A DNA stretch of 64,000 nucleotides, taken from NCBI GenBank assembly GCA_020063625.1, contig JAICDD010000004.1:1-64000 (forward strand), written 5' to 3'. Below are positions 51,628-52,400 of this stretch, piece after piece. A program made the position numbers and the translations under genes. This DNA is from Fusobacteriales bacterium (lineage in GTDB: Bacteria > Fusobacteriota > Fusobacteriia > Fusobacteriales > Fusobacteriaceae). The notes beneath the pieces are model-generated. The model was not told where the DNA came from. It saw nothing but the letters and a program-made list of their open reading frames with translations, and ran no database searches. Position 1 is the stretch's first letter. Every line of letters begins with the position of its first letter.

Positions 51628-51672
51628 AGAACTGGCAATGGGAAATAGTGAGAAGTGAGAAGAATTAAAATT

Positions 51673-52347
51673 TAGCCACGGAAAAACGCGGATTTAACTC
51701 AGCACAAGAAAAGAATGACACGAAGAGCACAAAGAAAAGAGGACACAAAGTACCACAAAGAAAAAGACTAGGAACCACGGGATTAATATAAGATAAAAAA
51801 ATTGTCAGTGGAAAATGGACAATTAAAAGTAGTCACGAATGACACTAATTATCACGAATTATAGTGAAAAGTCAGAAGTGAGAGAAATTTAAAAGTGCCT
51901 TTTCGGGAATATTAGATTTTTTTTGATAAATGCGTTACACGAAGAACACAAAGGAAAAAAAACAGAACCACAAAGGAAAAGACTTGGAACCACGGGATTG
52001 CCACAGATGAACACAGGATAAAATCTAGTGTAAATCTAAGATGTTTTTCGTAGAAAAATATCGAAAGCTGTGCCCGTGTAAATCTTGTGGTTTCAAAACT
52101 TCTTAGTGGTCTTCAATGTTTTTCTTCGTGCCCTTTGTGTAACAAAAATTATCTGTAGAAACTAGCGCAAAAGATTTTTTGCTTACTTTTTTATCTTTAA
52201 AAAAGTAAGTCGCCAAAGGCGAAATAATAAAAATTACACGAAGAACACAAAGGTAAAAAAACAGAATCACAAAGAAAAAAACTTAGTGGTCCTTAGTGCT
52301 TTTCTCTGTGCTCTTTGTGTAACAAAAAATCCGTATAATCCGTGACA
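51673..52347. repeat. ORF-free mosaic island of nested direct and inverted CAC/GTG-rich repeats
   Basis: 51-nt direct repeat (51935-51985 / 52234-52284, few mismatches); second direct pair CTTAGTGGTC...CTTTGTGTAACAAAAA (52102 / 52282); each pair forms inverted arms; outer GCCACGGAAAAACGCGGATTT / AAATCCGTATAATCCGTGAC. Confidence 0.85.
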
Positions 52348-52400
52348 AAAAATTTTATGTAGTAAAACTCAATATAAATAAAAAATAGGAGTTGAAATAA

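What the first reader, a model, noticed from the sequence alone, without database searches (positions are those of the whole stretch)
51628..52400. ORF-free CAC/GTG-rich nested repeat island between the flavin reductase gene and engB
About 770 bp with no ORF in the track and a composition unlike its flanks. It is a mosaic of the words CACGAAG, CACAAAG, CCACGG and their complements. A 51-nt block TTACACGAAGAACACAAAGGWAAAAAAACAGAAYCACAAAGRAAAARACTT occurs at 51935 and 52234. A matching right-hand block CTTAGTGGTC...CTTTGTGTAACAAAAA occurs at 52102 and 52282. Each left/right pair is an imperfect inverted repeat, so there are two elements (51935-52143 and 52234-52323). An outer pair GCCACGGAAAAACGCGGATTT / AAATCCGTATAATCCGTGAC encloses both. 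A further left-type block at 51717-51790 shares GACTWGGAACCACGGGATT with 51981-51999. This may be a non-coding mobile or structured-RNA element of unknown mechanism. I have an unverified impression that similar word patterns occur between genes in unrelated bacteria.
Basis: partly seen in the sequence, partly recalled or inferred. Interest (0 to 1): 0.85.

Follow-up and report, generated by a model that had tools for sequence, protein, structure and literature searches.

The report
Nested mobile hairpin pile between genes
A 750-base stretch between two genes is a pile of small hairpin-shaped DNA repeats that have recently multiplied through this one species, and the same repeat "words" elsewhere in bacteria flank a small predicted nuclease gene, which points to a little-studied class of mobile DNA.

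Summary
Window 51628-52400 has no ORF and is a mosaic of imperfect inverted word repeats. The own genome gives 127 BLAST matches to it, merged into 52 islands, all intergenic. A sister species (EngB 97% identical) lacks the island at all 15 orthologous sites examined.

The word arms are not unique to this genome. They occur in more than ten bacterial phyla. Gene-bearing versions enclose one ORF: GxxExxY (TIGR04256/PF13366, a PD-(D/E)XK, Cas4-like nuclease with invariant catalytic residues), or, with 7-nt-period arms, a four-helix-bundle gene (TIGR02436). Arm pairs flank 37/46 and, in a sample not chosen by the repeat, 19/29 GxxExxY genes, against 6/147 and 4/87 control windows. The last letter of the arm word (AG or AT) changes only once on the GxxExxY protein tree.

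Best reading: a nested cluster of non-autonomous relatives of these elements. Other modules join at the hairpin apex. The islands lie sense to the downstream gene in 43/44 cases, probably because the other strand carries terminator-like hairpins (60 versus 6).

Cutting by GxxExxY is inferred. This genome encodes no detectable GxxExxY or four-helix-bundle gene, no target-site duplication was seen, and word-family nesting is only weakly better than chance.

The parts
51632..51662 (+). 7-nt-period array (CTGGCAATGGGAAATAGTGAGAAGTGAGAAG): heptad-type module like the arms of four-helix-bundle elements
   Evidence: Sequence; arms of TIGR02436 genes have a strict 7-nt period (lag-7 identity 0.65 against about 0.23)
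51675..51695 (+). Module A left arm GCCACGGAAAAACGCGGATTT
   Evidence: its 14-mers recur 26-36 times in the fetched own-genome DNA
51716..51766 (+). Module B left arm, divergent copy (ACACGAAGAGCACAAAG..CACAAAGTACCACAAAG)
   Evidence: 51718-51739 is 91% complementary to 52299-52320
51773..51784 (+). Start of module C left arm (AACCACGGGATT), apparently unpaired
51800..51824 (+). Small palindromic AATTGTCAGTGGAAAATGGACAATT (heptad-like module)
   Evidence: similar words flank Fusobacteriota four-helix-bundle genes
51832..51861 (+). Module D left arm GTCACGAATGACACTAATTATCACGAATTA; nearly the same as the arm of a GxxExxY element in L304
51863..51884 (+). Second heptad-type array
51895..51934 (+). 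Module G GTGCCTTTTCGGGAATATTAGATTTTTTTTGATAAATGCG, recurrent leader of B left arms
51935..51985 (+). Module B left arm (three CAC words), outer hairpin
51988..52094 (+). Module C, left arm 51988-52019 and right arm to 52094, sitting at the apex of the outer B hairpin
   Evidence: a C left arm follows the third B word in 26 of 60 complete arms
52102..52143 (+). Module B right arm (CTTAGTGGTC...CTTTGTGTAAC)
52162..52226 (+). Module F CTAGCGCAAAAG..AAGTAAGTCGCCAAAGGCGAAATA, a recurrent hairpin module
52234..52323 (+). Complete closed B hairpin, the elementary unit of about 90 bp (left arm 52234-52274, right arm 52282-52323)
   Evidence: one single copy of this kind is in sister species G001 (L061:1501-1597)
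52327..52346 (+). Module A right arm AAATCCGTATAATCCGTGAC
51627..52375 (.). Whole inserted stretch; sister species G001 has a 2-base gap between the aligned flanks here

Best explanation
The island is a nested pile-up of non-autonomous copies of small hairpin-armed mobile elements. Each elementary unit is a stem made of two inverted arms, each arm holding about three copies of a short word (consensus CRYNNAK, such as CACGAAG, CACAAAG, CACAGAT, CACGAAT). In gene-bearing members elsewhere the loop holds one gene, usually GxxExxY, a PD-(D/E)XK (Cas4-like) nuclease; a parallel class with 7-nt-period arms holds a four-helix-bundle gene. Proposed mechanism: the nuclease reads its own arm words and opens the stem DNA so that copies can move in trans. 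Incoming units enter at the apex of a stem already present, which builds nested islands. Copies survive between co-directional genes only in the sense orientation, because the opposite strand carries terminator-like hairpins. Shown here: repeat anatomy, species-specific expansion, arms flanking these genes, arm word and protein varying together, apex position of neighbouring modules, co-orientation, terminator asymmetry. Inferred: arm recognition, nuclease-driven movement, and the source of the enzyme for this genome.
For: 127 BLAST matches to the island in the own genome; 159 exact hits of one 17-mer pattern there against 0 in the sister species and at most 1 in any of 97 other genomes of the phylum. 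15 of 15 orthologous sites lack the island in the sister. The words occur intergenically in more than ten phyla, including isolates such as Herpetosiphon, Pedobacter and Methylobacter. Inverted arms flank GxxExxY genes in 37/46 against 6/147 control windows, and in 19/29 against 4/87 in a sample drawn without using the repeat; four-helix-bundle genes 11/18 against 3/45. AG or AT word ending: one change on the protein tree, for 36 genes and then 56 genes, 0 of 500 shuffles; also 0 of 300 when shuffled within host group, and the finer word is clustered within AG and AT. Catalytic E27, D67, E77xK79, Q91 conserved in all or all but one of 50 sequences and Y95 in 47 of 49; weak Cas4 profile match over the active site. 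Module D equals, but for a few letters, the arm of a Fusobacteriota GxxExxY element. Third B word intact in 60 of 67 left arms, 6 of the other 7 being point variants. Co-orientation with the downstream gene 43/44; terminator-like sites 60 on the opposite strand, 6 on the same strand.
Against: Neither GxxExxY nor TIGR02436 is found in G000, so the enzyme is missing, lost, or hidden in assembly gaps (93.6% complete, several contig ends lie in the repeat). No target-site duplication is visible at the 15 sites. Matching of left and right arms by word family is only modestly above chance (160 matched tokens against 145.6, sd 4.7; bracket order alone explains most of it). About 20-35% of GxxExxY genes show no arms. 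No movement of a single unit was observed between near-identical strains.
Confidence: 0.62

Rival explanations
1. The units are ordinary MITE- or REP-like repeats moved by a known transposase acting in trans (for example a Y1/RAYT-type enzyme), and the GxxExxY and four-helix-bundle genes are passengers in their loops.
For: Short, palindromic, intergenic, many copies, nested; GxxExxY and TIGR02436 absent from this genome; two unrelated genes occupy the loops.
Against: The arm word and the GxxExxY protein vary together across phyla, which is not expected of a mere passenger; no target-site duplication seen. RAYT genes were not searched for.
Confidence: 0.17
2. The islands are selected regulatory or structured RNA elements (leader or intercistronic processing stems), kept and spread because they act on transcripts.
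For: Strict sense orientation (43/44), position just before start codons, strong folding (z -10.8).
Against: Absent from the sister species at the 15 sites examined, including the conserved lon-engB site; sense hairpins carry more A.C mismatches (73) than G.T (36), so the antisense RNA folds better in 21 of 22 copies; no Rfam match; island content differs from site to site.
Confidence: 0.1
3. The pattern arose by local slippage and template switching during replication or repair, growing imperfect palindromes in place, without a mobile element.
For: Nested inverted design, heptad arrays, fuzzy boundaries without target-site duplication.
Against: The same long modules (up to 92-94% identical over 120-230 bp) occur at scattered sites in one genome, and the same words enclose a specific gene family across phyla.
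Confidence: 0.07
4. The region is a decayed protein-coding gene.
For: None found beyond the lack of an ORF.
Against: 127 matches in the genome, inverted architecture and folding.
Confidence: 0.01

Closest known systems
Intervening sequences (IVS) of bacterial 23S rRNA genes with the S23 (four-helix-bundle) ORF, e.g. Coxiella burnetii (PMC4990558)
   Same: Two complementary end sequences form a stem and a single small gene sits in the loop; sporadic distribution; described there as a selfish element. Four-helix-bundle genes with inverted arms were found here between genes.
   Different: Units here lie between protein genes, not in rRNA; arms are word repeats; most carry no gene; they nest; the other cargo is a PD-(D/E)XK nuclease; RNase III excision not shown.
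MITEs and other small mobile repeats of bacteria (review PMC2229807)
   Same: Non-coding, inverted, intergenic, high copy number, no own enzyme.
   Different: No target-site duplication seen, no link to a known insertion sequence, arms are short repeated words shared across phyla, apex nesting.
REP/BIME repeats with RAYT transposases (PMC2817692)
   Same: Palindromic intergenic repeats, over 100 copies per genome, composite arrays.
   Different: Different sequence grammar, different associated enzyme family; RAYT not searched for here.
Intergenic TAACTGA heptamer repeats of Beggiatoaceae and cyanobacteria (PMC4679880)
   Same: Heptamer direct repeats between genes, mostly in one orientation before start codons, scattered over phyla; possible mobility discussed there.
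   Different: That paper's main text has no occurrence of 'four helix' or '23S', and its TAACTGA sets are direct repeats with one inverted repeat; the arrays here are arms of stems around genes.
Rpn-type PD-(D/E)XK nucleases (from my own knowledge, not tested)
   Same: Mobile-element-associated PD-(D/E)XK nucleases.
   Different: GxxExxY is a different, shorter family and no arm words are known to me for Rpn.

Membership tests
GxxExxY (TIGR04256) hairpin-armed element, as described here | Inverted arms of repeated CRYNNAK words | tested here: met
   Modules A-E of the island; module D matches the arm of L304
GxxExxY (TIGR04256) hairpin-armed element, as described here | GxxExxY gene in the loop | tested here: not met
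   No GxxExxY in G000; hence 'non-autonomous relative', not a full member
MITE | Non-coding, terminal inverted repeats, multiple copies | tested here: met
MITE | Target-site duplication | tested here: inconclusive
   15 occupied/empty site pairs, flanks too AT-rich and diverged, none seen
MITE | Ends match a known autonomous insertion sequence | not tested
   No insertion-sequence library was available
REP/BIME with RAYT | RAYT (Y1) transposase in the genome | not tested
23S rRNA IVS | Located inside a 23S rRNA gene | tested here: not met
   Lies between the flavin reductase gene and engB
23S rRNA IVS | Terminal complementary stem | tested here: met
23S rRNA IVS | Removed from RNA by RNase III | not testable with these tools
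   Needs RNA work
Any Rfam 15 family | Score at or above the gathering threshold | tested here: not met
   Best match 22.3 bits against a threshold of 48, E=4.4; all seven listed matches have E above 1

The most novel reading that the evidence does not exclude
A previously unrecognised, cross-phylum class of minimal mobile elements: a single PD-(D/E)XK (Cas4-like) nuclease or four-helix-bundle gene in the loop of a stem whose repeated arm words act as the specificity code of the enzyme, and whose cargo-less copies grow nested islands by entering hairpin apices in transcription-compatible orientation.
Probability: 0.42. Interest if true: 0.92.

Novelty: new variant of a known kind. Interest (0 to 1): 0.77.

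Why it matters
Intergenic words such as CACGAAG..CACAAAG occur in many bacterial phyla, and I found no name or explanation for them in the literature I could search. Tying them to two small orphan gene families gives a testable origin for a large body of unexplained repeats. The correspondence between arm word and protein clade offers a ready-made test of DNA specificity for a nuclease family with no solved relative found by sequence. The strict sense orientation, with terminator-like hairpins on the other strand, gives a simple rule for where such elements can survive.

Tried and rejected
Rfam search: nothing significant. Literature search for the words themselves and for GxxExxY: no paper describing either as part of a mobile element (open-access papers only). 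Own genome searched for GxxExxY and four-helix-bundle genes: none. Strand asymmetry of wobble pairs as proof of an RNA function: it points the other way (in one search copies were counted in both orientations, so only one search counts). Perfect balanced-bracket grammar by word family: only weakly supported. Replication-directed insertion as the cause of orientation: unlikely, because on contig C17 the orientation of islands flips together with local gene direction. GxxExxY frequency alone is weak evidence: 34 of 36 repeat-bearing genomes have it, but so do 37 of 81 genomes of one phylum sample, so the argument rests on arms and tree, not on co-occurrence. The structure model of GxxExxY had low confidence (pLDDT 55) and was not used. 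PDB sequence search: no relative.

Full report
1. The observation. The stretch between the flavin reductase gene (51145-51627) and engB (52401-52979) holds no ORF of 60 aa or more. The whole island folds far better than shuffled sequence (z -10.8).

2. Copies in this genome. A BLAST search of the own genome gave 127 matches. I fetched the surrounding DNA, and k-mer mapping plus merging gave 52 islands. They are mosaics of recurrent modules, which I call A (GCCACGGAAAAACGCGGAT), B (TTACACGAAGAACACAAAG..CCACAAAG / CTTAGTGG..CTTTGTGTAAC), C (AACCACNNGAT..CACAGAT / ..GTGGTTTC), D (GTCACGAATGGCACTAAT / ATTCGTGTAATTCGTGAC), E (AACGCAGAG.. / ..CTCTGTGTTGA), two further hairpin modules F and G, and 7-nt arrays (AGTGAGA)n. 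Several contig ends lie in these repeats.

3. The expansion is recent. A sister species in the same genus (EngB 97% identical) has one BLAST match to the island, a single 90-bp hairpin. At 15 of 15 sites where both flanks could be matched, the island is missing in the sister; at the window site 749 bases stand against a 2-base gap between the aligned flanks. One 17-mer pattern of the words has 159 exact hits in this genome, none in the sister, and at most one in any of the other 97 genomes of the phylum. No target-site duplication could be made out, but the flanks are AT-rich and diverged. The phylum is Fusobacteriota: a relative in the same family (G112, L298) carries the same GxxExxY flank as a plasmid of 'Fusobacteria bacterium ZRK30'.

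4. The words occur across bacteria. About a third of the hits lie well inside long open frames and may be chance. The rest are mostly intergenic, with the typical triple words, in Cyanobacteria, Proteobacteria, Bacteroidota, Planctomycetota, Chloroflexota, Verrucomicrobiota, Acidobacteriota, Desulfobacterota, Spirochaetota, Latescibacterota, Sumerlaeota and others, including isolates and complete genomes. A matching right arm lies within 120 bp in 39 of 130 hits, where about 2 would be expected from the density of the motif.

5. Gene-bearing versions. In several of these loci the two arms enclose one ORF, a GxxExxY protein (TIGR04256, PF13366 PD-(D/E)XK nuclease superfamily). For example L233 reads ACCACGAAGGACACGAAGAGCACGAAG-ATG...TGA-TTCTTCGTGCTCTTCGTGTCCTTCGTGGT. 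I then started from GxxExxY genes instead of repeats. In 46 genes (genomes reached through the repeat, plus Fusobacteriota genomes not chosen by it) 37 had complementary arms directly at the ORF, against 6 of 147 control windows in the same loci. In a further sample from one phylum drawn without using the repeat, 19 of 29 had arms, against 4 of 87 controls. Word classes like those of the window island (GAAG, AAAG, AGAT, GGAT, GAAT) are found as GxxExxY arms. Module D is nearly letter for letter the arm of L304. In one genus the same intergenic site holds three different GxxExxY elements with different arm sets.

6. Arm word and protein vary together. I labelled genes by the last two letters of the arm word (AG or AT). 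On the protein tree the label changes once among 36 genes (0 of 500 shuffles as low), and once among 56 genes after adding the second sample (support 99). Shuffling only within host groups also never reaches this. The four-letter word is clustered as well, within AG and within AT. So arms and protein travel as a unit or are matched to each other. Genes without a clear word (14 of 50, then 23 of 79) carry no label in this test. In the 50 sequences of the first set the catalytic positions E27, D67, E77, K79 and Q91 are conserved in all or all but one, and Y95 in 47 of 49; this is the pattern of active RecB/Cas4-type nucleases (established knowledge), and a weak Cas4 profile match covers that region.

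7. A second class. Repeat-bearing genomes also carry many four-helix-bundle genes (TIGR02436; 29 of 30). Of 18 that could be tested, 11 have inverted arms (control 3 of 45), and these arms have a strict 7-nt period (lag-7 identity 0.65 against about 0.23). The window island carries 7-nt arrays too. The same protein family sits in the loop of 23S rRNA intervening sequences, whose ends also form a stem (PMC4990558).

8. How islands grow. In this genome 60 of 67 left B arms keep their third word, and 6 of the other 7 differ only by point changes. After that word comes either the right arm (19), a C module (26), a heptad array (4) or something else (11). Other modules therefore join at the hairpin apex, where the gene sits in gene-bearing elements. 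Left arms come first and right arms later far more than in shuffled orders (160 nested-matched tokens against 96), but matching by word family is only modestly better than chance once bracket order is kept (145.6, sd 4.7).

9. Orientation. The islands lie in the same direction as the downstream gene in 43 of 44 cases and the upstream gene in 39 of 44. By my own arithmetic the first has a sign-test probability near 5e-12. Within contig C17 orientation flips with local gene direction, which speaks against replication direction as the cause. GxxExxY genes also mostly run with their neighbours (39 of 45 upstream, 34 of 42 downstream). The likely reason is transcription: terminator-like sites number 60 on the opposite strand and 6 on the same strand (window). 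In the closed B hairpins the sense strand has more A.C than G.T mismatches and folds less well than the antisense in 21 of 22 copies, which argues against selection for a tight sense RNA.

10. Reading and limits. The best-supported reading is a nested cluster of non-autonomous relatives of hairpin-armed GxxExxY and four-helix-bundle elements. Arm recognition and cutting by GxxExxY are inferred. The weakest points are the absence of both genes from this assembly, the absence of a visible target-site duplication, and that no enzyme-driven movement has been shown. The literature search covered open-access papers only; it found no description of these words or of GxxExxY as part of a mobile element. 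I rate the window feature a new variant of a known kind (MITE- and IVS-like), with a real chance that the underlying class is new.

Noticed in passing
L061:1501-1597 (G001:C9:47899-47993): The only copy found in the sister species is a single 90-bp B hairpin directly before a gene starting MKKIAYGISNFKTIIEDGYYYVDKTKYIE (resembles AAA-ATPase/PD-(D/E)XK proteins, from memory).
   Followed up: partly
L362, L363, L364, L365: One intergenic site in genus g14 is occupied by three different GxxExxY elements with different arms (one CACAGAG set, two CACGAAT sets) in different species: a possible hot spot.
   Followed up: partly
L328-L361: Four-helix-bundle (TIGR02436) genes between genes carry inverted arms of strict 7-nt period in many bacteria; the TAACTGA-type heptamer repeats in the literature may be the same thing.
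   Followed up: partly
G104:C1:426763-427384: Four tandem copies (about 160 bp apart) of a 137-bp hairpin related to the L288 element.
   Followed up: no
window 52162-52226 and about 20 other places in the own genome: Module F (CTAGCGCAAAAG..AAGTAAGTCGCCAAAGGCGAAATA) is a separate recurrent hairpin with a terminator-like stem on the - strand.
   Followed up: no
G000 contigs C9, C14, C21, C30, C33, C34, C36, C37, C38, C39, C3, C6: Contig ends lie in or near the repeat islands, so the islands probably break the assembly and gene-bearing copies could be missing.
   Followed up: no
window 53115-56165: Large ORF after engB that reads like a phospholipase-D-like plus DEAD-box helicase protein; not examined.
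   Followed up: no
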